From a virus, in IMG/VR virus record IMGVR_UViG_3300008267_011718, positions 1 through 59,312 of that record: 59,312 bases of DNA, one strand, 5' to 3'. This document shows positions 1,536 to 53,477 of this stretch, piece by piece. The notes beneath the pieces were generated by a model. It saw nothing but the letters and a program-made list of their open reading frames with translations. It had not been told where the DNA came from and ran no database searches. The translations under genes and the position numbers were made by a program. How positions within the stretch are numbered: the stretch's first letter is position 1; every line of letters starts with the position of its first letter.

Positions 1536-1946
1536 CTATACAACATAATAATCTGGATCTTCGTTAACGGCTATCAATTTATATTGATCAGCGTTAGCTA
1601 ATGCTGGGGCTGATAATTCAACATAAATATTTGTACTTGATGTATATAATTGTATGGAAATAAGATCATTAATCCATCTTTCATCTTCTTTTATAAAAAC
1701 ATTAACATTAATAAAGTTTAAAGATGCTACTTGAAAAGACGCGCCGCCATATAAAGTTGTAGGTAGTTCTATAATAGCGCCACCAGAAATATCAAAACTG
1801 CCAGTTTTTTGATATCTTAAACGCTTATAAGCATTCTGTATGTTTGCCGTGTTGGTTACATTTACAGCATACGAAGCAGTACCATAAAGAGTACCAGTTA
1901 TTTGCGGAGAATAAATATAGGAAGATGTAATAGTATTAATAATTAA
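1536..1946 (-). CDS. C-terminal part of a second tail fibre, in the -1 frame and lacking a start codon
   Basis: An open frame of 136 codons ends at a TAG at 1538..1536. Upstream it is bounded by an in-frame TAG near 1963, and between that TAG and the protein there is no ATG, GTG or TTG. Its C-terminal 60 residues (containing RWINDLISI, SAPALANADQYKL and VNEDPDYYVV) clearly match the C-terminus of the fibre at 2676..4163 (TWTNDLVSV, EAPALPDNNQIRL, VNDTNYILQG). The segment TGTLYGTASYAVN is typical of phage fibres. It continues the 66-residue ORF at 1943..2143 if the ribosome, or the true sequence, shifts by -1 at the GGT GGT TAA junction, giving a 202-residue fibre. Alternatives are a sequencing indel, a broken gene, or an unusual start codon. 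Confidence 0.7.
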   Translation of the reverse strand, partial: LIINTITSSYIYSPQITGTLYGTASYAVNVTNTANIQNAYKRLRYQKTGSFDISGGAIIELPTTLYGGASFQVASLNFINVNVFIKEDERWINDLISIQLYTSSTNIYVELSAPALANADQYKLIAVNEDPDYYVV

Positions 1947-2143
1947 CCACCAGATGCACTTATATTTGTTAAGTATCTACCATCGCCAACAAAATATGAG
2001 GCAGTAATCGGTAGAGAAGAACTTACATGACCATTTTCTAGAGTTCCACTAACATTAAATAAGACATTATTATTGGAATCTTGTTTTATTATTTGCTTCT
2101 TAGTAAGAAGGTCAGATAAAACTTTTACTGGCTTTGTTGCCAT
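1943..2143 (-). CDS. N-terminal part of a second tail fibre (zero frame)
   Basis: A strong ribosome binding site (GAGGA, seven bases before the ATG) precedes this 66-codon frame, so it is very likely translated. It begins MATKPVKVLSDLL, which resembles the start of the larger fibre nearby (MADLKVLTGL). It ends in YFVGDGRYLTNISASGG, the kind of sequence that normally sits in the middle of a fibre, not at its end. The frame then meets TAA directly where the fibre C-terminus opens in the -1 frame. I read it as the first third of a 202-residue fibre or attachment protein. On its own it would be a truncated stub. Confidence 0.7.
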   Translation of the reverse strand: MATKPVKVLSDLLTKKQIIKQDSNNNVLFNVSGTLENGHVSSSLPITASYFVGDGRYLTNISASGG

Positions 2144-2675: not shown

Positions 2676-4163
2676 TTAACCTTGTAATATATAATTTGTA
2701 TCATTTACAACTATTAAACGAATTTGATTATTATCTGGTAAAGCTGGTGCTTCAACAGTAATAAGAGGATACCAAACATCATCAATTAATGAAGCTGATA
2801 CATTGACCGATACTAGATCGTTTGTCCAAGTTTGATTTGGCCCGTTTCTTACTGCAACGTCAATAGAAGCACCAAACATTCTATTTAATAATTCTGATGG
2901 TCCTTCTACGGCACTAGCCGTTAATTGTGCTGGTAAAGCACCAGTAACATTTGCGGTTGACCAAGAATTAGTATCATTACCAGAGCCTGACAACAAGAAT
3001 GTAACAACACCACCGCTTGAAGCTCCTTTCATGCTAGATCTTACGCTATAGTATTTATTAATTGATAAGGGTGTCTCTTGTGGAAGAGCATTAGCTAAAT
3101 TGCTTAAAACACCTGTTAGGTTAAGATATCCAGTACCAGCTCCAAAATCTGTATCTGATAAAATTAAAACAGCGCCACTTAATGTTGAAGTACCTTCAAC
3201 TGTAAGACCAGTAAGGTTGCCTAAACTTGTTAGCGAAGAGTTGACAACAGTGCTGCCTAGTGTGGTGGAACTAAGAACTGATGAATTATTAATCTTAAAT
3301 TCTTTGCCTGACGCTAGATCAATATGCTCACTTGAAGTCCAAGAATCAGTGCTATTAGACCATTGAAATGTTTTATTAGTAGATCCGCTAAGAGTAATAC
3401 CACCACCATCAGCGCCTATATCTGTTGCAGCTGCACCGCCATCTGGTACACCTAAAATAACATTTTTATCTTTGATTGTTACGTTTTGTGAAGCTACTGT
3501 TGTTGTTGCACCATAAACAGTAAGATCACCAGTAATTGATAAATTTCCACCAACGCTTGCAGTGCCTGGTATGCTTACTGTTGCACCGGCAGCACCTATA
3601 GTGATTGTATTGCTAGTAACGCCAGTAAAAATGCTCTTATTTTCATTAGCGTCTGCAACTATATTTCCACCAAATGTAACATCACCGTTTAGCGTAGTGG
3701 TACTATTAACAGTTAAATCGCCGTTTAGCGTTGTAACACCGCCAACTTGTAATGTGCTAGAACCGCTAATGCTTGTAAATTTACCAGCTGCTTGTGTAGT
3801 AGCACCAATTGAAACTCCATCAATTGTACCGCCGTTAATATCAGCGGTTGTTACTGCGCCTAGATCACTAATTGTTGAACCATTAAAACTAAAAGTACCA
3901 GAGTTAAATGTTCCAGCTCCAACCTTATCTGCCGCTACTTGACCAGCAGCAAGAGTTAGAGTACCGGCAGAAACATTTAATGTTTTACCAGCGCCAACCG
4001 TAATATTTGAAGTGGCAATTGAAACTCCATCAATTGAACCACCATTAATATCAACTGTATTGGCAGTTAATGTGCCATTACCACCTACTGTTAAAGAACC
4101 ACTTGTATTAAGCGAGCCAGACACTTGCAGGCCTGTTAAAACTTTTAAATCAGCCATTTTCAT
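2676..4163 (-). CDS. Repeat-rich tail fibre protein
   Basis: This protein of about 495 residues has the low-complexity, Gly/Ser/Thr-rich beta composition of a phage fibre. Two copies of DINGG(S/T)IDGVSI sit in the N-terminal half, followed by LNGDLTVNSTTTLNGDVTFGG repeats. A middle module around IGADGGGITL and SSEHIDLASGK is, from memory, of a type common in marine T4-like phage fibres. The C-terminal 120 residues form a distinct domain shared with the broken fibre at 1536..2143. It probably trimerises and helps bind the host. The first ATG that suits the GGGA ribosome binding site is at 4163; an ATG two codons on (4157) is equally possible. A terminator follows directly. Confidence 0.85.
   Translation of the reverse strand: MKMADLKVLTGLQVSGSLNTSGSLTVGGNGTLTANTVDINGGSIDGVSIATSNITVGAGKTLNVSAGTLTLAAGQVAADKVGAGTFNSGTFSFNGSTISDLGAVTTADINGGTIDGVSIGATTQAAGKFTSISGSSTLQVGGVTTLNGDLTVNSTTTLNGDVTFGGNIVADANENKSIFTGVTSNTITIGAAGATVSIPGTASVGGNLSITGDLTVYGATTTVASQNVTIKDKNVILGVPDGGAAATDIGADGGGITLSGSTNKTFQWSNSTDSWTSSEHIDLASGKEFKINNSSVLSSTTLGSTVVNSSLTSLGNLTGLTVEGTSTLSGAVLILSDTDFGAGTGYLNLTGVLSNLANALPQETPLSINKYYSVRSSMKGASSGGVVTFLLSGSGNDTNSWSTANVTGALPAQLTASAVEGPSELLNRMFGASIDVAVRNGPNQTWTNDLVSVNVSASLIDDVWYPLITVEAPALPDNNQIRLIVVNDTNYILQG
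3806..3843 (-). repeat. Fibre-internal direct repeat, copy 2
   Basis: This 38-base unit inside the fibre gene matches 4016..4053 at 35 of 38 positions, with a period of 210 bases. It encodes DINGGTIDGVSI plus one flanking residue. The repeat reflects the repeated beta-strand module of the fibre shaft and could recombine to change shaft length. Confidence 0.8.
4016..4053 (-). repeat. Fibre-internal direct repeat, copy 1
   Basis: Partner of the unit at 3806..3843, in the same orientation, encoding DINGGSIDGVSI. The three mismatches are at 3827/4037, 3831/4041 and 3834/4044; at least one is a silent third-position change. Confidence 0.8.
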
Positions 4164-39241: not shown

Positions 39242-39424
39242 TTATTCCTCTACTGGTTGATCACTAAACAATATTTGCTTTGGAGGATTAGTAACAACTA
39301 ATTCTTCATTTGGATCTTGTATAAACTCAAAGCCTTTTAGTACTGGAACAATATCTGCTTGTTCCATCAAAGACTTTTGTAAGGCTACCATTACACAACT
39401 AAGAGCTTGATCTGATAATTTCAT
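39242..39424 (-). CDS. Small hypothetical protein, start set by overlap and RBS
   Basis: The ATG at 39424 overlaps the cytidylyltransferase stop (ATGA) and has a GGAG ribosome binding site seven bases upstream, so I prefer it to an in-frame start nine codons earlier. The 60-residue product (MKLSDQALSCVMVALQKSLM ... SDQPVEE) is acidic in its second half. It resembles nothing I can name. It lies between the glycan cassette and the zinc ribbon gene. Confidence 0.65.
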   Translation of the reverse strand: MKLSDQALSCVMVALQKSLMEQADIVPVLKGFEFIQDPNEELVVTNPPKQILFSDQPVEE

Positions 39425-39843
39425 TTGTTTTCTCCATGCATGCTTTCGCATATTAATTTTTTATATTTTGTAGTTGACCAGCCATGAGATCTATCAAGGT
39501 ATTTTATTTGTTTAGTAAGCTCTTGGCCTGTCGCATACTTATTTTTATAATCATCACCTAAAATTCTAACATCTATTTTATTATTTTTTAATATTTCTTC
39601 TAAATCTTTTTCTGTTGTATATCTTAAAACCTCATTAATGTACTTAATTGATAATAATATTTCTTCTCTTTCTTCAAAAGTTAATATTGGCTTACATTTT
39701 TCAGGCCTTTCAACAGTTGGATCTGTTTGTAGAGCTACAATTAGATAATCACAATATTCTTTTGCTTGCTTAAACATTGCAATATAGCCTGGATGTATAA
39801 CATCAAAAGATCCAGCTATAATACCTATTTTAACTTCTATCAT
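39421..39843 (-). CDS. Cytidylyltransferase-like nucleotidyltransferase (TagD/RfaE type)
   Basis: A 140-residue nucleotidylyltransferase of the HxGH superfamily. GSFDVIHPGY (11-20) is the nucleotide-binding motif and RSHGWSTTKY is the C-terminal substrate loop (TagD has RTEGISTT). Relatives make CDP-glycerol (TagD) or ADP-heptose precursors (RfaE C-terminal domain). The fourth motif position is Tyr (HPGY) instead of the usual His. The gene overlaps the UDP-glucose dehydrogenase by 14 bases at the end of the glycan run, so it probably activates a small sugar or polyol phosphate for the cassette. The substrate cannot be read from the sequence. Confidence 0.78.
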   Translation of the reverse strand: MIEVKIGIIAGSFDVIHPGYIAMFKQAKEYCDYLIVALQTDPTVERPEKCKPILTFEEREEILLSIKYINEVLRYTTEKDLEEILKNNKIDVRILGDDYKNKYATGQELTKQIKYLDRSHGWSTTKYKKLICESMHGENK

Positions 39844-40660
39844 CTACCGCCGACCTACTGTTAGACCAATCCCAATTTTTTCTTATTTCTTTATTATATT
39901 TCCAGACATCTTCAAAAATTTTTGTGTTTAATTCGTTTTGTCTCATCGTATTTATCAAGGCGTTGATATCTTTTGGAAAGCATGTACCTCCAAAGCCTCT
40001 ATCGCCATCTGGGCCTGGCACTTTTGTATGAGAGGTACCGATACGGCTATCGCTAGTTATACCTTTAATAACATTTTCATAAGATGCATCAATTTTATTG
40101 CACATATCATAAACAAGATTGAAATATGCAACCTTAACAGCTAAAAATGTATTAGAGAAGTATTTAATAGCTTCTGACTCGTCAGAAGTAGTTAGCAAAT
40201 TTTTTGTATTTGGTAATATAGTTTCTAAAAATTCAGCAACAACGATTACATCTTTTATATCACCCCCTACTACATTTCTTTCTGCTTTTTTAAAATCTTC
40301 AACTGCATTTGCAGCTGTTAGGAATTCTGGATTGTGTACAATGCGTAAATCTTTACGCATTTCCTGTATGCGCTTTGTTGTTCCAATTGGCACTGTTGAT
40401 TTGATTATAAAAATTCCATTTAACCAGACAGGTAGTGATTTAAAAAAACCTTCAAGTATAGATAAATTACATTCTCCACCCTCGGCACTTTTCATTGGAG
40501 TAGGCAAACAAACAAATATTAAATCACAACTAACAGTATCGGAAAATGTATTTAATGATCTATTTTCATCTTTATCAAAAACAAAAGTATCATATTTTTC
40601 TTTTATATTTTGATAAACTGCGTTTCCAACAAAACCATTTCCTATGATTCCAATTTTCAT
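39830..40660 (-). CDS. Short UDP-glucose/GDP-mannose dehydrogenase
   Basis: NAD-dependent sugar-nucleotide 6-dehydrogenase. The Rossmann opening (MKIGIIGNGFVGNAV), the STVPIGTT segment, the conserved FLAVKVAYFN (K175) and the catalytic GFGGTCFPKD loop (C227, K230) are all present. It would oxidise the C6 alcohol of a UDP- or GDP-hexose to a uronic acid. It is only 276 residues, where family members usually exceed 380, because the C-terminal nucleotide-binding domain is absent. The protein ends KNWDWSNSRSAVDDRS, and the downstream frames encode the cytidylyltransferase, so no missing domain is hidden. It may be a reduced phage form or need a partner. Confidence 0.83.
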   Translation of the reverse strand: MKIGIIGNGFVGNAVYQNIKEKYDTFVFDKDENRSLNTFSDTVSCDLIFVCLPTPMKSAEGGECNLSILEGFFKSLPVWLNGIFIIKSTVPIGTTKRIQEMRKDLRIVHNPEFLTAANAVEDFKKAERNVVGGDIKDVIVVAEFLETILPNTKNLLTTSDESEAIKYFSNTFLAVKVAYFNLVYDMCNKIDASYENVIKGITSDSRIGTSHTKVPGPDGDRGFGGTCFPKDINALINTMRQNELNTKIFEDVWKYNKEIRKNWDWSNSRSAVDDRS

Positions 40661-40661
40661 C

Positions 40662-41594
40662 TTATTTCCTTAAAGCTTCTAAAATTAAATCAATCCTATT
40701 TTTTACTAAATGATTTTCTGTTACTTTTTTATAGAGATTATTTGCTAATTTATTTCTGTATTCTTCATCGTGTAAAAGTTTATTTATCTTACTAATACAC
40801 TCTGTTTCATTACTATAATAACAGATATCTTCATCTTCTTTAAATAAATCATATATACCAGTTTCTTTTGATATTCTGTTAGTTATAACTGCGTTCTTAC
40901 AACCACCACCCTCAAAGATTCTTCTAGTTATCTCATCCCATCTAGCATATTGAAAAACGACAGTTCCTGAGTTGTAAAAAGCATTGTTTTCTTCATTTTG
41001 TATTCTTTTATTTAAGAATTTTTTATTTAAGAATTTTGGTAATATATTTGTATATGGTGGTCTATCACCACAAGTTGTTAAACAGATATTTTCTCTTGGA
41101 ACATCTTTATTATAATAAAAAATTGATTCATCACACCAATGAGTCATCCAAAAAGAATTATATCCTTTGGATTTATAAATATCATGACATCTTAGATCCG
41201 GTGTAAAAATAGCATCAACAAAATTTATTCTTTGTTGGTTATGAAGAAAAGTTTGAGGCTCATCGCCTAACTCAAGAAATAATTTTGTTTTTGTATTATT
41301 CTTTAAAGATTGTAATTCGCTATCAAATCTTTTAGAAGCTCCAGCATAAAAAAACAAAATTAAATCATATTGATTTGCTGTATCTTTTAAAGAAAAAAAA
41401 TTGTAGTTTAAAGGATCAGATAAATAATTTTGCTTTGTTTTATATTCTATTAATGCATCAAAATTACAAGTTTTTGTGTCTAAATAAAAACTATCAACTT
41501 TATTATTTGAATTGATGAACCCTTGTTCTATACCTTTAGGAGTTGACCATTCATTTTTATAAAAATCATACTGATAAACTATCGCTATATTCAT
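40662..41594 (-). CDS. CgeB-like glycosyltransferase
   Basis: A 310-residue protein with the layout of CgeB/Glyco_trans_1-type GT-B enzymes. It opens with a short alpha/beta N-terminal strand (MNIAIVYQYDFYK), has a central LFLELGDEPQTF segment, and ends with WDEITRRIFEGGGCKNAVIT, a loop that resembles the EAGGCGT-type donor site of this family. Such enzymes transfer sugars to polysaccharides or proteins. It overlaps the epimerase gene by 29 bases. Donor and acceptor are unknown. Confidence 0.7.
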   Translation of the reverse strand: MNIAIVYQYDFYKNEWSTPKGIEQGFINSNNKVDSFYLDTKTCNFDALIEYKTKQNYLSDPLNYNFFSLKDTANQYDLILFFYAGASKRFDSELQSLKNNTKTKLFLELGDEPQTFLHNQQRINFVDAIFTPDLRCHDIYKSKGYNSFWMTHWCDESIFYYNKDVPRENICLTTCGDRPPYTNILPKFLNKKFLNKRIQNEENNAFYNSGTVVFQYARWDEITRRIFEGGGCKNAVITNRISKETGIYDLFKEDEDICYYSNETECISKINKLLHDEEYRNKLANNLYKKVTENHLVKNRIDLILEALRK

Positions 41595-42477
41595 TCATAT
41601 AATCCTCTAGCTTTATTTTAGGTTGCCAGCCTAAAATATTTTTTGCTTTTGAAGCGTCTGCTAAAGTTACTCTTGATTCACCTACTCTTGGTGGGATAAA
41701 TTCATGTTCACCTTTCAACATCCTAACTAAATCTAAAACACTATGGTTTACTCCAGTGCCAATATTAAATATCTCTCCAAGACAATCTTTTTTGTCGCAA
41801 AAAGCCGCAAGTATATTGGCATCTACTACATCGTTAACATGCGTAAAATCTCTTCTTTGCTCACCATCGCCAACGACTGTCATTTTCTTACCTTCAAGTT
41901 TTTGCTTCTTAAATAGACCGATTACTGGAGCGTATTGTCCTTTTGTTGGTTGTCTTGGCCCGTATACATTAAAATATCTGAAAACAACTGTTTCTAAACC
42001 AAATAGTTTTGTGTACATTTGACATAGTTCCTCCCCCGCTGTCTTAGAGACTGAATACGGGTTTAGACAATCTTTTGTCATTGTCTCTATAAGAGGTGGC
42101 TCGTTTTTTAATCCATAGGCTGAAGATGTTGATGAGTAGATAACTCTTTTTACTCCACATTCTCTTGCCGCTTGTAAAACGTTACAAGTACCTACAGCAT
42201 TTACAATAACTGCCTTTATCGGATTTAATATGGCTGGTTGTATTCTTGCTTCCGCAGCGAGGTGAAAAACAATATCTACTTCGTACATTGCTTTTTTTAG
42301 TTCTTCATAATCACAAATGTCTAGATTATAATTTATTGTTTTTGGATTCCAATAAAATTGTTCATGCGCGTCAGATGATTCATTATCAACCACGACAACT
42401 TTATGGCCTTGCTTGACGAGATAATCAACAATATTTGATCCTATAAAACCAGCGCCACCAGTAACTAAAAACTTCAT
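41566..42477 (-). CDS. NAD-dependent sugar-nucleotide epimerase (GalE-like)
   Basis: Extended short-chain dehydrogenase of 303 residues. It has a TGGAGFIGS dinucleotide motif at the start, DNESSD after the second strand, a YSSTSSAYG catalytic Ser region and NPYSVSK holding the Tyr-Lys pair. Closest in pattern to UDP-glucose 4-epimerase or UDP-glucuronate 4-epimerase. Together with the UDP-glucose dehydrogenase two genes downstream it could make UDP-galactose or UDP-galacturonate. The exact sugar is not decidable by eye. It abuts the Fcl gene with one base between. Confidence 0.85.
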   Translation of the reverse strand: MKFLVTGGAGFIGSNIVDYLVKQGHKVVVVDNESSDAHEQFYWNPKTINYNLDICDYEELKKAMYEVDIVFHLAAEARIQPAILNPIKAVIVNAVGTCNVLQAARECGVKRVIYSSTSSAYGLKNEPPLIETMTKDCLNPYSVSKTAGEELCQMYTKLFGLETVVFRYFNVYGPRQPTKGQYAPVIGLFKKQKLEGKKMTVVGDGEQRRDFTHVNDVVDANILAAFCDKKDCLGEIFNIGTGVNHSVLDLVRMLKGEHEFIPPRVGESRVTLADASKAKNILGWQPKIKLEDYMNEYSDSLSV

Positions 42478-42478
42478 A

Positions 42479-43405
42479 TCATACTCCTCTTATGTTTGGA
42501 TAATTTTGCTTAAACCAATCACAGGTTTTTTTTAGCCCTATTTCAACTGGCGTGTACATTTCATCACGCCAACCTAATTCAATAAATTTTTTATTTGAGC
42601 TGGGTTTTCTGACCTGGCCTTTTGGTTTACTTGTATCAAAAACAATTTCGCCTCTATAATCTAATTGTTTGCAAATTATTTCTATAATTTGTTTTAGCTT
42701 ATATTCTTTTATTGAGCCAATATTAATTGGGTTTTCCGACTTGTAATGCTCTAAAGAAAAAATTATAGCATTAGCTATGTCTTCCGCGTATGTGAATTCT
42801 CTATAAACTTCTCCATCGCCCCAAACTTCAAATGTTGGTTTGTTGTTTATTTTTGCTTCCCAAATTTTTCTTATAAGCGACGGAATTACGTGACCATTTT
42901 CTAGATCAAAATTATCATGTTCCCCATACATATTATTTGGTATCACTGATATGTATTCGTGTCCATATTGTTGATTTGCCGCTCTTAATTGAACATCTAC
43001 CATGCGCTTTGCATATGCATAACCAAAGTTTGAATCATGCGGTGGCCCATTATGTAATTGGTCTTCAGTAAGCGGATACGTTACATATTTTTCATCTGGA
43101 TATACACAGGTTGATAAACAACAAACTAATTTTGGTACTTTATATTTTATGCAAGCATCAATAATGTTATTATTTATCAACGAATTTTCAGAGTAGAAAT
43201 CTGATACTTTTTCAGTATTAGCTTTAACGCCACCGACTTTACCGGCTAAATGTATAACAGATTGAGGTCTAAAACTATAAAAATAATGAAATACCTCTTT
43301 CCTGTCTTTTAGGTCTATTGCTTCTTTTGTTGGATATCTTGCTTCAGGTAATATTTTTTTAAAAGCGTTTCCCAATAAACCATTACCACCAGTTACTAAT
43401 ATCAT
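42479..43405 (-). CDS. fcl: GDP-L-fucose synthase
   Basis: The 308-residue protein follows GDP-fucose synthase closely. It has a TGGNGLLGNA NADP-binding start, HLAGKVGGVKANTEK, CLSTCVYPD, a YAYAKR motif holding the catalytic Tyr and Lys (Y129, K133), VIPNNMYGEHDNFD, and a GDGEVYREFTY segment. The enzyme converts GDP-4-keto-6-deoxymannose into GDP-L-fucose by epimerisation and reduction. Its substrate would come from the Gmd enzyme at 54712..55692 in the same run, and a GT10 fucosyltransferase at 48227..49153 could use the product. The assignment is among the most secure in the cassette. Confidence 0.9.
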   Translation of the reverse strand: MILVTGGNGLLGNAFKKILPEARYPTKEAIDLKDRKEVFHYFYSFRPQSVIHLAGKVGGVKANTEKVSDFYSENSLINNNIIDACIKYKVPKLVCCLSTCVYPDEKYVTYPLTEDQLHNGPPHDSNFGYAYAKRMVDVQLRAANQQYGHEYISVIPNNMYGEHDNFDLENGHVIPSLIRKIWEAKINNKPTFEVWGDGEVYREFTYAEDIANAIIFSLEHYKSENPINIGSIKEYKLKQIIEIICKQLDYRGEIVFDTSKPKGQVRKPSSNKKFIELGWRDEMYTPVEIGLKKTCDWFKQNYPNIRGV

Positions 43406-44521
43406 TTAAACCTCATTTTCACAATATTTTAAAATTTTTTCAGATATGTAGTCTATTTCATCTTTTTTCAATGAAGGACTTGATGGTAATATTACTATTT
43501 CTTTTAATAAAATTTCAGCTTCTAGTTCTTTATCTTTATTAGAATATTTTTTTAAGTGTTCGTGATAAGACATTGGATAAAACATATTTCTTGTTTCTAT
43601 TCCGTTTTTTAGAAAAAAATCATTTGAATTTTGAAAATTTTTATTATTTAAAATTCTTATAGAAAACATCCATAAAGCATTTTCACAATTTTCTTCTTCA
43701 AATTGAAAAATTATTTTTCTATTATTTTTTAAATTTTTTTTGTATCTATTAAAAATTATTTTTTTCTTTTTTAATATTTCATCTTTTATTAGTAGCTGCC
43801 CATATAGAATAGCAGCTTGTATATTTGTCATTCTATAGTTGTAACCTAAAACATCGTGAATATATCTTGTTTTAGTTTGTCCTTGGCTGTGAGTTTTTTC
43901 TAGTTTTTCTAAAAGCTCTAAATCGTTTAATATTAAAGCGCCGCCCTCTCCACAAGTTATAGTTTTGTTACCATAAAAAGAAATAGAACTTGCTAAGCAT
44001 TCAGTTCCTGCAAAACTATTCTCATATTTACCAAGAAAACCTTCGCAATTATCTTCAATAACTAAATATTCTGGCAGTCTTCTCTTAATTTCTTTTGTGT
44101 TAATAATTCCACCTAAGTTATGAACAACCAAGATTGCAGTATCTTTAGCGCTTCTCTTATTACACTCTAAAATTATATCTTCTAGATCCATATTCCAAGT
44201 TTTTAAATTTGTTCTGACTGGGATTAAATTAATATTATCGCCATCAAACAGCATAGCATTCCAAGCAGCCACATAAACATTGCAGGGGACAATCAAATTT
44301 TTAATATTAGGATTCTTAAACTTTAAAGCTTTATAAATTAAATGAGTTGAAGTTGTACCATTATTTGTTAAAATATTAGATTTACAATCTAAAATATTGT
44401 TTAATAAATTTTTTGAACAATCTTTAAACTCACCTAAATTTGAAATCCAAGAAGAATCTAACGCTTGATGTGCGAATTTAATTGTTTTTTTTGGAAGATA
44501 TGGTTTATAAATTGGAATCAT
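43406..44521 (-). CDS. DegT/DnrJ/EryC1 sugar aminotransferase
   Basis: PLP-dependent aminotransferase of 371 residues. SFYGNKTITCGEGG carries the PLP lysine (K186) and VIEDNCEGFLG carries the cofactor Asp (D157, in place of the usual EDAAQA). The opening IPIYKPYLPKKTI and ISNLGEF match sugar aminotransferases such as perosamine synthase and PglE. It would replace a keto group with an amine on a nucleotide-linked sugar. A candidate substrate is GDP-4-keto-6-deoxymannose from Gmd, but another keto sugar is equally possible. Its gene abuts Fcl, so the two may form a branch point. Confidence 0.88.
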   Translation of the reverse strand: MIPIYKPYLPKKTIKFAHQALDSSWISNLGEFKDCSKNLLNNILDCKSNILTNNGTTSTHLIYKALKFKNPNIKNLIVPCNVYVAAWNAMLFDGDNINLIPVRTNLKTWNMDLEDIILECNKRSAKDTAILVVHNLGGIINTKEIKRRLPEYLVIEDNCEGFLGKYENSFAGTECLASSISFYGNKTITCGEGGALILNDLELLEKLEKTHSQGQTKTRYIHDVLGYNYRMTNIQAAILYGQLLIKDEILKKKKIIFNRYKKNLKNNRKIIFQFEEENCENALWMFSIRILNNKNFQNSNDFFLKNGIETRNMFYPMSYHEHLKKYSNKDKELEAEILLKEIVILPSSPSLKKDEIDYISEKILKYCENEV

Positions 44522-44830
44522 TTAGTATGTTTTATGCTTTCTTTGAATATACTTACCGCTATCAAGATCTTCTCCACTTGCGGCATCTTTAATCATTTGT
44601 ACGATTTTTATATCAATTTCATCAATAAGCTGATTTCGTTGAACATTAAGATCGCACGCCTTCTTAAGACATTCCCACAAGCGTATTGCGCCCTCTTCAT
44701 TTTGAAAATATTCTTTTTTATATTCTTCAAAAGTCATTTTTCTAATTTTATATAGCTCTTCCTGATTATTCCACATTTTTGTATCAGCTGTAAAAAGTTT
44801 GTCTACTAAGCTTCCTAATGTATCTGCCAT
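44522..44830 (-). CDS. Small protein resembling DUF4254
   Basis: A 102-residue helical protein. The pattern of W20-N-x-QEEL, a central LWECL and NVQRNQLIDEID (N62, R65, N66, D70, D73) recalls DUF4254, a small family often found in lipopolysaccharide and glycosyltransferase loci. It sits between the GNAT gene and the aminotransferase in the middle of the cassette, which fits that association. Normal DUF4254 proteins are longer, so this may be a compact form. Function is unknown for the family. Confidence 0.5.
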   Translation of the reverse strand: MADTLGSLVDKLFTADTKMWNNQEELYKIRKMTFEEYKKEYFQNEEGAIRLWECLKKACDLNVQRNQLIDEIDIKIVQMIKDAASGEDLDSGKYIQRKHKTY

Positions 44831-44831
44831 A

Positions 44832-45257
44832 TTATATTTTCCTTTTCATAAAAAAACTGTTTTCATTTTCTTGAAAAACTACAAAATTTTTCTTTTTATA
44901 TAAATTTATAGCCGGTATATTAGACTTATATACCGATAAAAATATTTCATTTATACCATAATTTTTAGCCGTATTTAAAGTTTCTTCTAATAATTTATCA
45001 CCAAGCTTTTTACCTATATAATTTTCTCCAATACAAATTCCAAACCAAACTTTTTCTGAATCTTTGTCTAAATGACTATATCCAGCTAATTCGTCATTAA
45101 AATATAATAAAAAAGTAGCTAAATGTTTTTCAATACATTCAAAGTTTCTTTTTTTAAAATAAGTAAAATTATTTACAGATGAGCCAGCTTTGAGCTCAAA
45201 AAAATTTTTAACTTCGCTTAAGTGTTCTTTTGGATGTATTTTTATAATTTTTATCAT
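44832..45257 (-). CDS. GNAT-family N-acetyltransferase
   Basis: The 141 residues fit the GNAT fold. The acetyl-CoA-binding loop is at about 80-90 (YIGKKLGDKLLEE, the R/Q-x2-G-x-G/A position), preceded by a WFGICIG strand, and the C-terminal part has SNIPAINLYKKKNF with the usual Asn and Tyr. Within a glycan cassette that also holds a sugar aminotransferase, acetylation of an amino sugar is a natural role, but GNAT enzymes are diverse and the substrate cannot be read. It abuts the GT9-like gene with no gap. Confidence 0.82.
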   Translation of the reverse strand: MIKIIKIHPKEHLSEVKNFFELKAGSSVNNFTYFKKRNFECIEKHLATFLLYFNDELAGYSHLDKDSEKVWFGICIGENYIGKKLGDKLLEETLNTAKNYGINEIFLSVYKSNIPAINLYKKKNFVVFQENENSFFMKRKI

Positions 45258-45947
45258 TTAAGTTAAAATCTCCCACTTTTTATTTAGCGAGCTATGATCT
45301 ATTATATTATTTCTTATATTTTTATGTAAAAATAATTTTTTAAAATTAATTGTATGCGTTAAGCAATCCAAAAGGCACAAAACACTACTTGACATACAGT
45401 GTATTTCTTCTGCGTTTTCAAATATTTTTATTAAATTAAAAAGATTTATACTTGGATCATTTTTTATTATTTTAAAATTAGATTGTATATCTATTTTATA
45501 TCCTCTTGATTCATCATCATGCACAAAGATATATTTTTCATTTTTTTCATTTAATTTATTAAATGCTTTTTCTTCTTCTTCTAAATTTCTTTGAAAATAA
45601 AAGCTTGTATATTTTTTTTCATAAGGTAGTTTAGCTATATCATAAAAAATTTGTGAACAACTCTTTTTGCCGTCATCAAATACATTCATCAAGTCATAAC
45701 CTATAATTAATTTTTCCCCTTGATGATACCGCAAAGAATGTACTGTTTCCCATCCGGTATCGTATCCAGTACTGATGACTTCAATTTTTTTATTATCTCT
45801 ATACATATATTTCATTATTTCAAGATAGCTGGGTTTACTATAGACTACCGTCTTATCGTACATACTTGCATAGTGTCTAACTATACCGTTACAGTCTATT
45901 ATGTCACCAAGACCTAAATGATGAAGGATAACTATGTTTTTTTCCAT
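45258..45947 (-). CDS. Candidate GT-B glycosyltransferase (GT9-like)
   Basis: A 229-residue protein with a heptosyltransferase-like look. It begins HHLGLGDIIDCNGIVRHYA (the GxGDxI opening of GT9) and has an EIHCMSSSVLCLLD segment near residue 185 that resembles the donor-binding region of GT-B enzymes. It is shorter than typical GT9 enzymes (about 320), so it may be reduced. Neighbours are the FkbM methyltransferase and the GNAT gene. Treat as a probable but unconfirmed glycosyltransferase. Confidence 0.58.
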   Translation of the reverse strand: MEKNIVILHHLGLGDIIDCNGIVRHYASMYDKTVVYSKPSYLEIMKYMYRDNKKIEVISTGYDTGWETVHSLRYHQGEKLIIGYDLMNVFDDGKKSCSQIFYDIAKLPYEKKYTSFYFQRNLEEEEKAFNKLNEKNEKYIFVHDDESRGYKIDIQSNFKIIKNDPSINLFNLIKIFENAEEIHCMSSSVLCLLDCLTHTINFKKLFLHKNIRNNIIDHSSLNKKWEILT

Positions 45948-45960
45948 TACACTTCCAATT

Positions 45961-46587
45961 TTATTTTCTTTTATAAAGTTGATCGTTAACTGTTATTTGA
46001 CCAACAAAAATATAATTAAAGTTAATCATATAATTATATAATTCTTTTCTTCTATGTTCGTCGGATGAAGATTCTAATAATATAAAATTTGGCTTATTTT
46101 TATTTAAATTTAGGCCATTTAAGGCGTTTATCTCATATCCCTCTACATCAAGACTTAAAAAATCAATATCTTTTTTTCTACCTATACTTTCTATTATTTT
46201 TTCAAGAGTCAACGCTTTAACAGGAACAGGAGCTTCATTTGCCCATCTTTCCTCGGAACAAAATTTATTTAGCTCAAAAGAAACTTGACCACATAATGAA
46301 TTTTCATAATCATTTTTGTTAAAAAAACCATCTATTGTTGTTTTTTCATAGTTATCATCAACTAGCGCACAGTTGAAATAATAATTATAAGGCCGATTAG
46401 CGATACATTGTTTGAACATATGGATATTTGGTTCAATTAAAATACCTCGCCAGCCAATATTTTGTAACATTAAAGTGTTGCTTTGCCAAATTCCATTGTT
46501 GGCTCCAGCCTCTATATAAAAACCATTACTAATATGTTTTAAATGTTCAAAAATTATTTGATCTAAATTATAAGGCGAATTTGACAT
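45961..46587 (-). CDS. FkbM-family methyltransferase
   Basis: SAM-dependent methyltransferase of 208 residues. FYIEAGANNGIWQSNT (about 23-38) is motif I, ILIEPN motif II, and DIDFLSLDVEGYEINAL the FkbM-type core with its Asp. FkbM enzymes O-methylate sugars and polyketides, and many are found in capsule and phage glycan loci. It is 13 bases from the upstream start of 45258..45947 and two bases from the GT4-like gene. It could methylate a sugar of the phage-made glycan; whether the target is free or attached is unknown. Confidence 0.85.
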   Translation of the reverse strand: MSNSPYNLDQIIFEHLKHISNGFYIEAGANNGIWQSNTLMLQNIGWRGILIEPNIHMFKQCIANRPYNYYFNCALVDDNYEKTTIDGFFNKNDYENSLCGQVSFELNKFCSEERWANEAPVPVKALTLEKIIESIGRKKDIDFLSLDVEGYEINALNGLNLNKNKPNFILLESSSDEHRRKELYNYMINFNYIFVGQITVNDQLYKRK

Positions 46588-46589
46588 TT

Positions 46590-47543
46590 TTAATCCAAGA
46601 AAACTCTTTTAAATTCTTTCATTACATTCTCTGGAGTGTATTCGGAAACTAAATTTTTATATTCATTCGGATTATGAGTATTTTTATCAAAATTTACTAA
46701 AATATCATAAAGTTTTTCTGGACTATCGTACCAAATACCTTTATTTTTTAACATATGATGATGGCCTTCGTCAGATCCGCCTACCCAAGAAATAACAGGT
46801 TTTCCTGAAGTTAAAAATTCTCCAATTGATAAGCTGAATATTTCACCTAATAGTCTTCCATGCATCATGGCATCACATGTATTTAAAAAATTAGATTTTT
46901 CTTGCAAGTCATATATTGGGTCTAAATGAATTATATTTGGAAGTTTCATACAGAATGGTTTAGTATTTAGAAATAAAAAATATATAAATTTATTATTTAA
47001 AGCCACTCTTTCAATAGTTTTTTGCACAAATGGAATATTAAATTCATCATAGCCGCCGTGTCTTCCGAATACTATTGCATTTTTTGGAATTTTTAATTGC
47101 TCTCTTAAGCTTTTATTTGCTTGTGGAAGATTAAACATATGAGTCACAAATGGCATTTTTCCGCCAGACATTTTTTTTGCTTCCCATTCAGCTATATAAG
47201 CATAAACATCGCCATGAGGATCATAATTTTGAAAAACAGAATGTACGACACATTTACATTTTTTTGTTATTTTTCCATCAAATTCTCCACCTTTTATCAT
47301 GTAAAGAACATCAATTTTCTCTCTCTCTATTATTGAATCAACTTCACTAAAATTTTCATATTCAAAAACTTCAAATCTATTTTTAAAATTTTTTATACCC
47401 AATTCGTGATTCATGTGGTGATTTTTTTGATAGATTATAACAGATTTATTATTTAATAAAGTTTCATTAAAATGAGCATAATCATAAATTGCTACTGAAG
47501 TGCCTCTTATGCATAATTGATTACTGTGAAAAGCTATTTTCAT
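46590..47543 (-). CDS. GT4-like glycosyltransferase
   Basis: A 317-residue protein with an E-x7-E donor motif. E234 and E242 lie in LLGEIFSLSIGEFLTSGKPV, which matches the GT4 signature. The N-terminal strand MKIAFHSNQLCIRGTSVAIY and the CDAMMHGR segment fit a GT-B fold. A retaining transfer from a nucleotide sugar is expected. It sits between GT25-like and FkbM genes. Sugar and acceptor are unknown. Confidence 0.75.
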   Translation of the reverse strand: MKIAFHSNQLCIRGTSVAIYDYAHFNETLLNNKSVIIYQKNHHMNHELGIKNFKNRFEVFEYENFSEVDSIIEREKIDVLYMIKGGEFDGKITKKCKCVVHSVFQNYDPHGDVYAYIAEWEAKKMSGGKMPFVTHMFNLPQANKSLREQLKIPKNAIVFGRHGGYDEFNIPFVQKTIERVALNNKFIYFLFLNTKPFCMKLPNIIHLDPIYDLQEKSNFLNTCDAMMHGRLLGEIFSLSIGEFLTSGKPVISWVGGSDEGHHHMLKNKGIWYDSPEKLYDILVNFDKNTHNPNEYKNLVSEYTPENVMKEFKRVFLD

Positions 47544-47552
47544 ATTTTTTTC

Positions 47553-48233
47553 CTATCTTAAAGTTGATTTATAAGTTCCATTTTCTGAGCCCTGTGAAAC
47601 AAGTGCTGGTTCCCACCAGTAAACCTTAGCATTATGTAGATAAAATTGATAAGAATATTCCCAGTCTGAAATTGTTCTAAACGGTTTCATTGTATAAACT
47701 AATTTTTTAGCTAGGCTGGTTTTTACTAAAAAGGCATCAGCACACTTAGATGCTGGGTGGTTTTTGAAATAAGCTATCTGGTTTGGCAAAATATTGTCTG
47801 GTTTTAAATTACAACAATTTCCCATAAAAATTACTTCCCAGTCTTTTGGAGTATTATCTAAATATTTATTAAATAAATTTACAAAATCTTCTTTAAAAAG
47901 AACATCATCCTCTAAAATTAGTCCATATTCTTTGCACTCTTCGCTAATTTTTTTAATAGCATGATAATGTTTAATGGTTAAAGAAATCTCAGATAAATTT
48001 AATTTTCTGAATAGAGTGGACTTATTACCATATGCTTTTGAAATTGTATTATTGTATTCCTTTTCATCGCACTTATAATATTCGTTTATAATATTTTCGT
48101 TTAAAATATCTCTGTCAAAATCATAAATATAATCAGCTTTTAATTTATTTTCTCTTAAAAAACCATCTAGTTTTTGTTTTCTTTCAGCTAGTTTTGTATA
48201 ATGTGTTACGTAAATTTTTTCTACATTTAACAT
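47553..48233 (-). CDS. GT25-like glycosyltransferase
   Basis: Short (226 residues) GT25-type enzyme. It has an early MLNVEKIYVTHYTKLAERKQ (the I-L-x-R-x-x-R start), a SEISLTIKHYHAIKKI segment typical of the family and the DXD-like GLILEDDVLF motif (LEDD at 107-110). GT25 members transfer beta-1,4-galactose or glucose residues in lipooligosaccharide or collagen. It overlaps the GT10 fucosyltransferase gene by seven bases. The substrate here is unknown. Confidence 0.8.
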   Translation of the reverse strand: MLNVEKIYVTHYTKLAERKQKLDGFLRENKLKADYIYDFDRDILNENIINEYYKCDEKEYNNTISKAYGNKSTLFRKLNLSEISLTIKHYHAIKKISEECKEYGLILEDDVLFKEDFVNLFNKYLDNTPKDWEVIFMGNCCNLKPDNILPNQIAYFKNHPASKCADAFLVKTSLAKKLVYTMKPFRTISDWEYSYQFYLHNAKVYWWEPALVSQGSENGTYKSTLR

Positions 48234-49153
48234 ATAATCTTCTCTTTAAAAAATTTTAGAATCGTGTTTGGTAAAAATTGTTCTGGTATTTTACCATCTT
48301 CAAAAACTGGCTGTAAAATTATATCTTCGTACATATGCTTATTAGAATCTATGGATTTTATATGTTCCATTAAGTCGTTTAAACTTAAAAAATCATCTAC
48401 ATTAATAAAACATTTTTTATTAAAGTCTAGATTTACTTTTGAAGATCCCCAATAAATCGGTATGCTGCCAACAGATAATGGATGAATTATTTTTTCCGTT
48501 GTATATCCATCAAATTTGGAATTTTCAGCTGAAATAGTAAACTTATAATTTTTAATAAAATCTACTTTGTGCCTCTGATCGCCTCTTCCTTGAATAGAAT
48601 AATTTGTATTATTTAAAAGTCTCCCAGCGCAATCAACATTTTTATATTTTTTTATTGCGTCTAATATTTCTATTCTTCTACCTTGATTATTAGAAAAAAT
48701 AAAATTACAAAATTTATCTTTTTTAATAATTTTTCTGTTTATTAAATCATCTAGCGGAATTAAATAAGACTGATCTCTTGTCTCACTATGAGGAACATCA
48801 AACCAATTAATAAATAATATCCATAGTGGCAATCTATAATTTCTAGGATCTTTTGAAAAATCAAAAGAAAAAGAAAAATCACATTTTCCAATACTATATC
48901 TTTCCATCTCTATAGAGCCAGGAAAATATAAATTTGGTCTAACGTTTTCTCCTGTGAAAAATATTTTTTTACATTTATGATCTAAAAATTTATTTCTTTC
49001 TCTTTTTTTAGAATAGTCAACAGAAAAAAATAGCAAATCTGGATCTTCTGATATTTCTACATTATAGCTATTTGAAAGAAGATGAAAAAAATAATTATCT
49101 TTTTTATCAAAATTGTTCCAAAAATCAACAAAGTTTATTTTTAGTTTTTGCAT
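48227..49153 (-). CDS. GT10-type fucosyltransferase
   Basis: The 308-residue protein carries the conserved core of alpha-1,3/1,4-fucosyltransferases. From residue 205 to 251 it reads FTISAENSKFDGYTTEKI, then PLSVGSIPIYWGSS and CFINVDDF. In GT10 enzymes this core binds GDP-fucose. The ribosome can find its donor made in the same run by Gmd and Fcl, which strengthens the call. The acceptor is unknown; the genes around it encode a GT25-like enzyme and an uncharacterised transferase, so fucose may be added to a short chain they build. Confidence 0.86.
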   Translation of the reverse strand: MQKLKINFVDFWNNFDKKDNYFFHLLSNSYNVEISEDPDLLFFSVDYSKKRERNKFLDHKCKKIFFTGENVRPNLYFPGSIEMERYSIGKCDFSFSFDFSKDPRNYRLPLWILFINWFDVPHSETRDQSYLIPLDDLINRKIIKKDKFCNFIFSNNQGRRIEILDAIKKYKNVDCAGRLLNNTNYSIQGRGDQRHKVDFIKNYKFTISAENSKFDGYTTEKIIHPLSVGSIPIYWGSSKVNLDFNKKCFINVDDFLSLNDLMEHIKSIDSNKHMYEDIILQPVFEDGKIPEQFLPNTILKFFKEKIIC

Positions 49154-49154
49154 A

Positions 49155-49886
49155 TTAATTTTTTCTTCTATGGTGATTAATTATTTGTTTTTCATTTTTT
49201 GGTCTAAACGCCCAGCCCCATTGGCATATATCCTCTTTAGAAAATATATCATATTTATGTCTTAATAAAGAAATAATACTTTGATCATGCCTATGTTCTC
49301 TAAAGCCTTCATAATTTGGAAGACCTAATGTATTTGGCATGTCAGTCAAAATTCTAGCATCTTCGGAAAATTTTAAATATTCTCTATAAAGATTAATAGT
49401 GAAATCAGTTTTTCTACATAGCTGTAATGATGCAGTTAGTTGTCTATCATAAGGAGCGCATGGGGTTGAATCAGTAAACATTTTATCTAAACCCATCAAA
49501 ATAAAGCAATCTCTTTTTGTCCAAGTGTGATTTAAATGAGAATTATTATAAAATAATACTATGCCTCTTTCTTGCTCACAAACTAGATCAAAATAATATT
49601 TCATATTTTCAGAAAATTCTATTGCTGCATCTGAATAGAATAATATATCGTTTTCATCCATTGCTTCTAACGTTTTTAAAATAATATATGGCTTCCAAAG
49701 CCAATAGCCAGCGCCTCTTGGTTGCATTAAGATGTTTTGATTTTTAAAAACAAATTTATCGTCTAAATTTTTAAAATTATACTTAATAACATCAGTAAAG
49801 CCACCTATTTCTAGGCCTGTTTTAGCATTTTTTTCTTGAGAAGCATAAAAACCATTATGTGCATAATTAATTAAAATTTTTCTCAT
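49155..49886 (-). CDS. Uncharacterised glycosyltransferase-like protein (YWLWKP family)
   Basis: A 243-residue protein from a family I know only as putative transferases. MQPRGAGYWLWKPYII at about 54-69 and FYSDAAIEF (83-91) are its conserved blocks, the latter in the place of a DXD metal site. The N-terminus begins MRKILINYAHNGFY. Its gene overlaps the GT47-like gene by four bases (ATGA). It is probably an inverting or retaining GT-A enzyme, but direct evidence is the motif pattern only. Confidence 0.6.
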   Translation of the reverse strand: MRKILINYAHNGFYASQEKNAKTGLEIGGFTDVIKYNFKNLDDKFVFKNQNILMQPRGAGYWLWKPYIILKTLEAMDENDILFYSDAAIEFSENMKYYFDLVCEQERGIVLFYNNSHLNHTWTKRDCFILMGLDKMFTDSTPCAPYDRQLTASLQLCRKTDFTINLYREYLKFSEDARILTDMPNTLGLPNYEGFREHRHDQSIISLLRHKYDIFSKEDICQWGWAFRPKNEKQIINHHRRKN

Positions 49887-50677
49887 TTAATTTTCTCCAC
49901 AATTCTTTCTGTAGCCTCATAAGAGCCAATTGGTGAACAATTTTTTTGATACCATTTTTTACAGTTATATGACATAAATTCCCAACGGTCTTTTGAACAT
50001 GTTTTAATAATTTTTTGTATATCTTCAGGAGATTTTACTTTAAAATAATGAAAATTTTCAATAAGCGGGTCAAAATATCTTGTGTCAACATCTTCAGTTA
50101 CTAATGGTATAACTCCAAGTGCTAAGTATTCTATTTCTCTATTACATTTTGGACCATATCCAGGTAAGCACAATCCAAATTTTGAATTTGCTACTTTATC
50201 AAGATACTCTTCCTGAGTGTAGGGCCAAGAAAAACTGTCGCCTAATTTGATCGGCATACTGAATAATTCTATATATTTTGACCAATCATACTTTGTTCTA
50301 TTTGCTTGCTGAACGCCGTTTTCTATCTTACCTAGAAAGATTGATTCTGTGCTACGCTCTTCAAATGCCTTTAAACCGCCCATAACCTTGTTATGGAGCA
50401 TTTTTGGTCTTCTACCCCAATAGATCCAAGGTGAACCGTTTGGATGCTGCATACCGCCAAATAAACCTCTTTGCCATCTATTTGGTAACCAAGGGAATAC
50501 ATCCCATCTATCATATTCATATAAAAGTATTTTTCCTGGCTCTTCTACCCATAAAAAATAATCGTTTACCTCGTTCTCAATCACTTCACAAAGATTCATT
50601 TCTTTCCAGATTTTTATTAACTCTCTGGAAGTGTCTCCTTTGTGTTCAGGAGTCTGTTTACCAACATATATTTTCAT
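49883..50677 (-). CDS. Exostosin/GT47-like glycosyltransferase
   Basis: A 264-residue protein whose C-terminal third reads KFGLCLPGYGPKCNREIEYL, followed by ALGVIPLVTEDVD (166-197), the exostosin (GT47)-like donor site where a conserved Arg-Glu precedes the ALGVIP strand. The N-terminal part is shorter than in full-length exostosins. Neighbours are two other transferase genes. The likely action is retaining or inverting transfer of a nucleotide sugar; the acceptor is unknown. Confidence 0.66.
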   Translation of the reverse strand: MKIYVGKQTPEHKGDTSRELIKIWKEMNLCEVIENEVNDYFLWVEEPGKILLYEYDRWDVFPWLPNRWQRGLFGGMQHPNGSPWIYWGRRPKMLHNKVMGGLKAFEERSTESIFLGKIENGVQQANRTKYDWSKYIELFSMPIKLGDSFSWPYTQEEYLDKVANSKFGLCLPGYGPKCNREIEYLALGVIPLVTEDVDTRYFDPLIENFHYFKVKSPEDIQKIIKTCSKDRWEFMSYNCKKWYQKNCSPIGSYEATERIVEKIK

Positions 50678-50679
50678 AT

Positions 50680-51534
50680 TTAAACCTTGTAAAAATCAGA
50701 CAAAATTTTATTTGATTTCAAACTATTTTTAATATCTTGATTAGAATCTAAAAGATAATTTAAAAGTTCTCCTCTTGAATCACAAGGCTCCCCTAACCAA
50801 GTAGTTTTTGTTATTTCTTTTATTTTATCAAATATTTTTTGTGTTTGAATATCAATGTCATAAACGCTCAAATTAGCTTCATTGCATGCAAAATCTTGTT
50901 TATTAAATTGTTTATCTATTTTACAATCTAAAAAATTTTCTTTTGTAAAATTTTCATTAGTAGTAAAAGTTTTAATCATTAAATTTTGATCTGAACCATA
51001 GCGTTCGTCTTTTTGTGAATAATAAAAATCAAAATTCATACCTTTGATTATTGGATTTATTTTATTTGGCTTAAAACTACAAAGTCCAGCCAACATGCGA
51101 CAAGGCATACCAAAATGATTTTCATGACTTCTAATAGTACCAACTGTGTTACTAGAATTTTCAAATATTTTTATATATTTATATTCTAAATCGCTAGTAA
51201 GAGAATCAACATCTCTTGCATGGAAAACTTCAATTCCTCTTTCCCAAAGAGGCATCATTCTCCAAATAGCAGGCTCAGTTAATTTATAATCTCTTTGAAC
51301 AGTTTCTGTTCTAACATTACCAAAAATTTTAAATATTTCAGATAAAGAATTATTCCATATATTTGGAGACAAATAAAAAACCACCTCATAGTCAGGATAA
51401 ATGGTTTTATTCAAGAGCAGGATTGTTGGTATATTATACCAATATCTTGCGCTATCATTTTTCCATCTATCCCAAGTTCTATGAGGTGGTAAATGTTTTG
51501 GTTCAAATAAAGAATAAGAAAAAACTTTCTTCAT
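50680..51534 (-). CDS. GT-A type transferase candidate (DVD motif)
   Basis: A 284-residue protein with FHARDVDSL (D108, D110), a DXD motif in the position expected of a GT-A transferase. It is preceded by a short MKKVFSYSLFEPKHLPP start and followed by a GMPCRMLAGLCSF segment. I do not know the family. It directly abuts the GT4/GT2 fusion upstream and the GT47-like gene downstream, so a role in the same glycan is likely. No cysteine-based motif or membrane segment is seen. Confidence 0.58.
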   Translation of the reverse strand: MKKVFSYSLFEPKHLPPHRTWDRWKNDSARYWYNIPTILLLNKTIYPDYEVVFYLSPNIWNNSLSEIFKIFGNVRTETVQRDYKLTEPAIWRMMPLWERGIEVFHARDVDSLTSDLEYKYIKIFENSSNTVGTIRSHENHFGMPCRMLAGLCSFKPNKINPIIKGMNFDFYYSQKDERYGSDQNLMIKTFTTNENFTKENFLDCKIDKQFNKQDFACNEANLSVYDIDIQTQKIFDKIKEITKTTWLGEPCDSRGELLNYLLDSNQDIKNSLKSNKILSDFYKV

Positions 51535-51535
51535 A

Positions 51536-53476
51536 TTATTTTATAATATTTGAAAATTTCTCAAAGATCTCTTCCTCTTCTTTTTGCTTCCAAGAGAAAT
51601 TTTCAAAATTGGTTGATATACCTTTTGGATTGAAATAGTATACTCCAAGAACTTCATTTATTTTAGTAAATTTTGATCCTCCAGCAACACATGTTAACCA
51701 GAATTCCCAATCTGATGCTGATTTATGTTGCTCGTTAAAATATCCAAATTTATCATGCAAAGACTTTCTCCACATTGGATTGTTGTGTGGTAGATTTCCT
51801 CTCAGCATTGCCTTAGCGGAAAACTGCTCAAAGTTATATCTTTGTGAATCTCTTGGAGCTTCTGACCATTTTTTATTTGGTTCATGAACAATAAAGCTAT
51901 CAGCATAGACCAGATCTGAATCTTTAGATGCAAATAACGCTTTGGCGTGTTTTTCTATTGAATATGGAGCTTTTCTGTCATCCATATTAGCATTAGTCAA
52001 AAATTCGCCACTTGCCATTTTTACAGCCATATTCCAAACTGCATAGATACCAGGATCTTGATCAAGTTTTTTATAGATAATATTTGGATATTTTTCCATA
52101 TATTTCTTAATTACTGGTTCTTCATTGCCTGGAGAATTAGCATTTATAAGGATAAGCTCGCATTTTTCTTTAAAGATTGTTTGGCTTGTAATATCTTCAA
52201 GATATCCTTCAATAAATTCATCCGCGTCATACACTGAGCCTATGATTGAAATTTTTGGAAGCTCTTTAGTGTCAATTTTTATTAGCTTTTCTCCACTAAC
52301 TAATTCATAAAATTTGTCATATAGCTTTTCTTCAGTGTATTGTTTTCTAATGTGTGAGCTTAATTTTTTTGACCAACTCTTAAATCTTCCATGGTCCTTA
52401 TGTACTTCCCTCATTTTACTCTTTAAATGGCTTTGAAGAGGATAAGCCCACAAAGTTCCAGCTTCTAAAACACCTTGCCATGTATGCTCTTGAGCAATTG
52501 GTTTTAGCTCATAATCAACTTTAGCAAATAATTTCTTTTCAATGCCTTCTTCATCTTTAACTGTTAAGAAGTCTAAATGACCGCTCCAATCTGTTGCAAT
52601 GACTGGTAACTCGTTGTATGAGGCTTCAAATAAGGGGAAACCAAAACCTTCACCGTGCGTTGAAGAAACAATTGCTTTAATTTTTGGATGTTTATAAAGC
52701 GACTGCATCTCTGATTCAGACATATGACCGTGTAATAAATAAACACTACATTTTCTATTTGGAAACTTTTGCAATAATTGTTTTAGTTTTGTTTCTGTTG
52801 CTTCTTGATCTAATAAAGAATCATTGGCTGTATTGATTTTTAATACTAAACCAACATTTTCTTGCCCAAATTCTTCTATAAATGCTTGAATGGTTTGTTC
52901 AACATTTTTTCTTGGGCTCCATTGACAAACAGTTAAAAAATTAAAATCATGTTTAAAATCCAACTTTAGTTCAGTTTCTTTAAAATCTCTAACAGGGAAA
53001 TGACAAACTTCTATTGGTTTTGTTACGCTGTATTTATTGCCTTGCTGGTCAGCAAAAACAGTATTAATGAAACTAGATTTTGCATGTTCGCTGATGACAA
53101 TAATTTTATCCATTTGCATAGATGGTTGTAGCCACGCAGGAGATATTCCATTTGTTTCAATACCAGCAGTATAGCCTATATTTATTGGGGCTAACTTCTT
53201 CCATTCGTTAGGAATCGTTACTTGAATAGAAATATCAAAATTTGGCTGTCCGCCTGTCTGTTGAATTAATTGTTGTGTTTTTACTATTAAAGAATCTATC
53301 TCTTTTTTTTCTTCTGAAAGCTCAAAAATATTTCCAGTTGCACCCCAGTTTGTTGGTAACAAATAAACTTCACAAGCTTCTTCTGCTGCTTTTAATGAGC
53401 GATAAGCAAATCTGGCCATTTCTCCATAACCAGAACGACTTAAGATAGGACCAGATATAACAATTTTCTTTTTCAT
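51536..53476 (-). CDS. Fusion of GT4 and GT2 glycosyltransferase domains
   Basis: Two transferases in one 646-residue chain. The N-terminal 400 residues are GT4-like, with HGEGFGFPLFEASYNELPVI (E-x7-E in 276-285), and begin ISGPILSRSGYGEM. From about residue 408 a GT2 domain starts (KISIIGSVYDADEFIEGYL), with a NANMDDR metal site (498-500) and the late HNNPMWRKSLHDKFGYF block. The arrangement suggests two sugars added in sequence by one protein. It lies immediately after the other GT4 gene. The donor sugars are not readable. Confidence 0.88.
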   Translation of the reverse strand: MKKKIVISGPILSRSGYGEMARFAYRSLKAAEEACEVYLLPTNWGATGNIFELSEEKKEIDSLIVKTQQLIQQTGGQPNFDISIQVTIPNEWKKLAPINIGYTAGIETNGISPAWLQPSMQMDKIIVISEHAKSSFINTVFADQQGNKYSVTKPIEVCHFPVRDFKETELKLDFKHDFNFLTVCQWSPRKNVEQTIQAFIEEFGQENVGLVLKINTANDSLLDQEATETKLKQLLQKFPNRKCSVYLLHGHMSESEMQSLYKHPKIKAIVSSTHGEGFGFPLFEASYNELPVIATDWSGHLDFLTVKDEEGIEKKLFAKVDYELKPIAQEHTWQGVLEAGTLWAYPLQSHLKSKMREVHKDHGRFKSWSKKLSSHIRKQYTEEKLYDKFYELVSGEKLIKIDTKELPKISIIGSVYDADEFIEGYLEDITSQTIFKEKCELILINANSPGNEEPVIKKYMEKYPNIIYKKLDQDPGIYAVWNMAVKMASGEFLTNANMDDRKAPYSIEKHAKALFASKDSDLVYADSFIVHEPNKKWSEAPRDSQRYNFEQFSAKAMLRGNLPHNNPMWRKSLHDKFGYFNEQHKSASDWEFWLTCVAGGSKFTKINEVLGVYYFNPKGISTNFENFSWKQKEEEEIFEKFSNIIK

Positions 53477-53477
53477 A

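What the first reader, a model, noticed from the sequence alone, without database searches (positions are those of the whole stretch)
1536..2143. Second tail fibre gene is split by an apparent -1 frameshift with no start codon in the second frame
The zero-frame stub (66 codons, strong ribosome site) ends SASGG at TAA. The next 136 codons, in the -1 frame, carry a C-terminal domain matching that of the intact fibre at 2676..4163, and have no ATG, GTG or TTG before them down from an upstream TAG near 1963. A -1 shift at GGT GGT TAA would join them into a 202-residue fibre. No canonical slippery heptamer (X XXY YYZ) is visible and there is no long homopolymer, so neither a textbook programmed shift nor a simple homopolymer error is obvious. 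The options are a non-canonical recoding site, a phase-variable or decaying fibre, or an assembly indel.
Basis: partly seen in the sequence, partly recalled or inferred. Interest (0 to 1): 0.6.

Follow-up and report, generated by a model that had tools for sequence, protein, structure and literature searches.

The report
Phage fibre gene broken at mosaic joint
A short tail-fibre-like gene of an uncultured phage is cut in two because a stretch in its middle is missing at a joint between two differently related sequence blocks; all 39 comparable genes found on 25 other phage contigs are in one piece, so this looks like an ordinary broken or misassembled gene and not a special way of reading the code.

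Summary
The split is real in the sequence. A 66-codon gene (1943..2143, minus strand) ends at TAA. A 136-codon continuation in the -1 frame (to 1536) has no usable start codon. Relatives explain it: on 25 other IMG/VR contigs, 39 genes carry the same N-terminal module and the same C-terminal domain in one open frame; only the window has them split. The window lacks the front of a middle module (xTTGSVTGSGxxxNPIxLxDP) that L002, L003 and L074 carry directly before the homologous stretch. The break also sits on a mosaic boundary. Up to the junction the DNA matches L003 at 57/60 bases; beyond it the match falls to 30-33/60 with L003, against 45/60 with L002, and the flanking genes are again L003-like. 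There is no slippery heptamer, no stimulatory structure, no homopolymer above 3 bases, and the junction is in no other IMG/VR contig searched. Best reading: an out-of-frame deletion or illegitimate recombination joint in a modular tail-fibre-like gene, either a recent real mutation or, less likely, an assembly chimera; only reads can decide. A programmed frameshift is not supported. Ordinary.

The parts
1943..2143 (-). N-terminal stub, 66 aa, ends at the TAA created at the joint; family-wide N-terminal module MATKPVKVLSDLLTKKQ...
   Evidence: 92% identical to the N-terminus of the 301-aa gene in L003
1536..1946 (-). -1 frame continuation, 136 codons plus TAG: rest of a middle module (LIINTITSSYIYSPQITGTLYGTASYA) and the C-terminal beta domain; no usable start codon
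   Evidence: 66% identical to L002; A2 profile
1943..1979 (-). overlap of the two open frames and the junction GGTGG/TTAATTATT; left edge of the L002-like block
1539..1838 (-). C-terminal domain (100 aa), confident all-beta model
   Evidence: mean pLDDT 87, pTM 0.78; weak, non-significant fold matches to phage tailspike and fibre structures
2676..4163 (-). intact long fibre-like gene with a remotely related C-terminal domain
   Evidence: 32% over 114 columns, E=3e-6; PHROG 6002 virion structural protein

Best explanation
This is one modular tail-fibre-like gene broken by an out-of-frame joint. The family has a conserved N-terminal module, a variable repeat-rich middle and a conserved C-terminal beta domain. 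In the window an L003-like N-terminal part was joined, by illegitimate recombination or deletion, to an L002-like middle and C-terminal part without the front of the middle module. The joint does not keep the frame and creates the TAA. Translation should give only the 66-residue stub; the C-terminal domain has no start and should not be made. The C part is still open and conserved, so the event is recent. Shown: the break, the unbroken state of all relatives, the missing module front, the mosaic boundary at the break. Inferred: the joining mechanism, the loss of function, and that the protein is a tail fibre.
For: 39 genes on 25 other contigs have both parts in one frame, none split. The module front present in L002, L003 and L074 is absent in the window. 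Identity to L003 drops from 57/60 to 30-33/60 exactly at the junction while L002 matches 45/60 beyond it, and the flanking genes on both sides are L003-like (82-97%). C part versus L002: dN 0.22, dS about 2.1; stub versus L003: dN 0.05, dS 0.58, so both halves have a history of purifying selection. No recoding signals. The junction 25-mer is in no other IMG/VR contig searched.
Against: No relative with the same N and C alleles in one frame was found, so the lost piece and the donor are not known exactly. The dN/dS values mostly reflect time before the break. The locus lies within about 2 kb of the contig end, and reads were not available, so an assembly chimera is not excluded. The collection may leave out records very near the window.
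Confidence: 0.68

Rival explanations
1. Assembly chimera: two coexisting strains with different fibre alleles were joined wrongly in the metagenome assembly, so no phage carries this junction.
For: The break coincides with a boundary between L003-like and L002-like sequence, the junction is unique, the locus is near the contig end, and fibre genes are where strains differ.
Against: Assemblers normally join over long shared words; the window's own flanks share no word longer than 6 bases, and the sequence returns to L003-like genes downstream.
Confidence: 0.22
2. Programmed -1 frameshift or other recoding makes a 202-residue fibre.
For: Both frames are open and conserved, and the shift would join homologous parts.
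Against: No in-frame X XXY YYZ heptamer in the stub, RNA folds downstream no better than shuffles (z 0.55 and 1.09), no relative needs a shift, and the shift site was created by the joint itself.
Confidence: 0.02
3. Two proteins: the C domain is started at an unusual codon such as ATT near 1941 after termination at the TAA, with GGTGG as a weak ribosome site.
For: ATT codons lie 1-5 nt beyond the stop in the -1 frame, with GGTGG just upstream.
Against: ATT starts are very rare (general knowledge), no ATG/GTG/TTG is available, and no relative makes the C domain separately from this N module.
Confidence: 0.04
4. Phase variation: the phage population switches this fibre on and off at the joint.
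For: A second, intact fibre-like gene with a related C domain lies 0.5 kb away, so loss may be tolerated; the family has a repeat-rich middle.
Against: No tandem repeat or homopolymer above 3 bases at the joint and no relative in an off state. Invertible elements were not searched for specifically.
Confidence: 0.04

Closest known systems
Modular phage receptor-binding proteins (tail fibres and tailspikes) with a conserved N-terminal anchor and exchanged C-terminal domains (e.g. PMC10408124)
   Same: Conserved N-terminal module, variable middle, C part with a different nearest relative from the N part; all-beta C domain.
   Different: No sequence or significant fold match to a characterised fibre; receptor binding untested; here the gene is split.
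Pseudogene or disrupted gene at an illegitimate recombination joint or deletion
   Same: Frame broken, stop at the joint, missing internal piece, intact homologues elsewhere.
   Different: The C part carries no further damage, so the break is recent or only in the assembly.
Programmed -1 frameshift genes (such as the tail assembly gpG/gpGT pair of lambda-like phages, from general knowledge)
   Same: Two overlapping open frames, the second without a start codon.
   Different: No slippery heptamer, no structure, not conserved in relatives, different type of gene.

Membership tests
Programmed -1 frameshift | slippery heptamer X XXY YYZ in the zero frame inside the overlap | tested here: not met
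   none in the stub frame
Programmed -1 frameshift | downstream stimulatory RNA structure | tested here: not met
   fold energies no better than shuffles, z 0.55 and 1.09
Programmed -1 frameshift | split conserved across relatives | tested here: not met
   39 genes on 25 contigs are in one frame
Disrupted gene (out-of-frame deletion or joint) | homologues intact in one frame | tested here: met
Disrupted gene (out-of-frame deletion or joint) | a defined piece missing at the break | tested here: met
   front of the middle module, present in L002, L003 and L074; exact ancestral length unknown
Disrupted gene (out-of-frame deletion or joint) | junction present in the real phage DNA | not testable with these tools
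   no reads available
Phage tail fibre / receptor-binding protein | sequence match to a known fibre family | tested here: not met
   no Pfam or PHROG match for either part; no similar record in annotated phages
Phage tail fibre / receptor-binding protein | fibre-tip-like fold and structural-gene context | tested here: inconclusive
   confident all-beta model; top PDB matches include a tailspike, pyocin fibres and the AP22 fibre, but all with E>0.1; baseplate wedge genes in the same window

The most novel reading that the evidence does not exclude
The split is functional: the C domain is made by a non-canonical shift or from an ATT start as a minor or separate product, letting the phage tune the dose of a receptor-binding domain.
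Probability: 0.04. Interest if true: 0.6.

Novelty: new member of a known kind. Interest (0 to 1): 0.13.

Why it matters
It matters little beyond annotation: the two frames should be recorded as one disrupted fibre-like gene, not as a recoding candidate. It is a clear example of a mosaic joint inside a fibre-like gene that failed to keep the frame. It also shows an unannotated family of modular fibre-like genes, without a Pfam or PHROG match for either module, on 25 uncultured phage contigs.

Tried and rejected
A single-base indel or homopolymer error was rejected as the simple account, because a module piece is missing and the break is a mosaic boundary. A programmed frameshift was rejected. 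Reassignment of the stop codon is irrelevant, because reading TAA through does not change the frame. Two independent genes were rejected, since relatives have one gene. Searches that gave nothing: annotated phage genomes by DNA and protein, prokaryote genomes, the exact junction in IMG/VR, Pfam and PHROGs for the two pieces, solved structures by sequence, and significant fold matches. Two alignment calls failed on wrong coordinates and were repeated with corrected ones. A literature search for programmed frameshift, tail fiber and phage together returned five papers; only titles and abstract openings were looked at, and none pointed to a recoded tail fibre.

Full report
Observation. On the minus strand the stub runs from ATG at 2143 to TAA at 1943-1945 (66 aa, ending SASGG), and a -1 frame of 136 codons runs from 1946 to the TAG at 1536. 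It has no ATG/GTG/TTG until a TTG some 15 codons before its end. None of 20,000 composition shuffles kept 146 codons open, so the C part is real coding sequence.

Relatives. A scan of IMG/VR with the C part found L002 (66% identity); a scan with the stub found L003-L009 (92-61%) and more distant matches. In all of L002-L009 the N-terminal module and the C-terminal part lie in one open frame. Profiles of the two parts (A2, A3) brought in more loci. Counting stop-to-stop frames, 39 genes on 25 distinct contigs carry both parts in one frame, 176 to 483 codons long. Two other N-module genes are single long frames (702 and 710 codons) without this C domain. Only the window has an N-module frame that ends after the module (67 codons stop to stop).

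Anatomy of the break. L002, L003 and L074 carry a middle module reading approximately T[TS]GS[VI]TGSGxxxNPIxLxDPL[IV]I. The window has it only from LII onward: the N part ends GCATCTGGTGG and is followed directly by TTAATTATTAATACT. The sequence up to the junction is L003-like (57 of 60 bases, the last 25 identical). The sequence after it is not (30 and 33 of 60 against the two L003 copies) but resembles L002 (45 of 60). The neighbouring genes on both sides are again L003-like: 97% for the gene at 970-1500, and 89% and 82% for the two small genes upstream. So an L002-like block sits in an L003-like background, and its left edge is the frame break. That is what an out-of-frame joint of illegitimate recombination or deletion looks like. 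Which lineage swapped, and how long the lost piece was, cannot be told, because no relative with the same two alleles in one frame was found.

Recoding. There is no in-frame X XXY YYZ heptamer in the stub, and the longest homopolymer in the 34-nt overlap is 3 bases. RNA folds downstream are no better than shuffles. The split is absent in all relatives, and the junction 25-mer is absent from the rest of the IMG/VR copy searched (records very near the window may be left out). A programmed shift therefore fails three tests. A start at ATT cannot be excluded by sequence but has nothing in its favour beyond position.

State of the gene. Between the C part and L002, dN is 0.22 and dS about 2.1; between the stub and L003, 0.05 and 0.58. 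Both halves have been under purifying selection for most of their history, so the break is recent or exists only in the assembly. A real joint is favoured over a chimera, because the window's own flanks share no word longer than 6 bases and because the downstream genes return to L003-like sequence. Reads are needed to settle this.

What the protein is. No Pfam or PHROG family covers either part, and nothing similar is in the annotated phage collection. The C domain is predicted as an all-beta fold (pLDDT 87). Its weak fold matches include a phage tailspike, R-pyocin fibres and the phage AP22 fibre, none significant. With baseplate wedge genes in the same window, 'tail-fibre-like' is a reasonable inference, not a demonstration. 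Exchange of C-terminal domains behind a conserved N-terminal anchor is well described for phage receptor-binding proteins (PMC10408124).

Verdict. The gene is an ordinary disrupted (or misassembled) modular fibre-like gene, and recoding is not supported.

Noticed in passing
window 39421..55692, minus strand: A run of about 17 genes whose translations read like nucleotide-sugar epimerases and dehydratases, an aminotransferase, glycosyltransferases and a methyltransferase (by eye), a large sugar-modification cluster for a phage.
   Followed up: no
25 IMG/VR contigs (L002-L009, L051-L087): Many contigs carry two fibre-like genes of this N+C family side by side (for example 178 and 425 codons in L006 and L007), with the same C domain on different middles; no Pfam or PHROG match was found for the modules.
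   Followed up: partly
window 57326..57928, minus strand: A 200-aa ORF that reads like an HNH homing endonuclease (by eye), next to the PhoH-like gene at 57977..59287.
   Followed up: no
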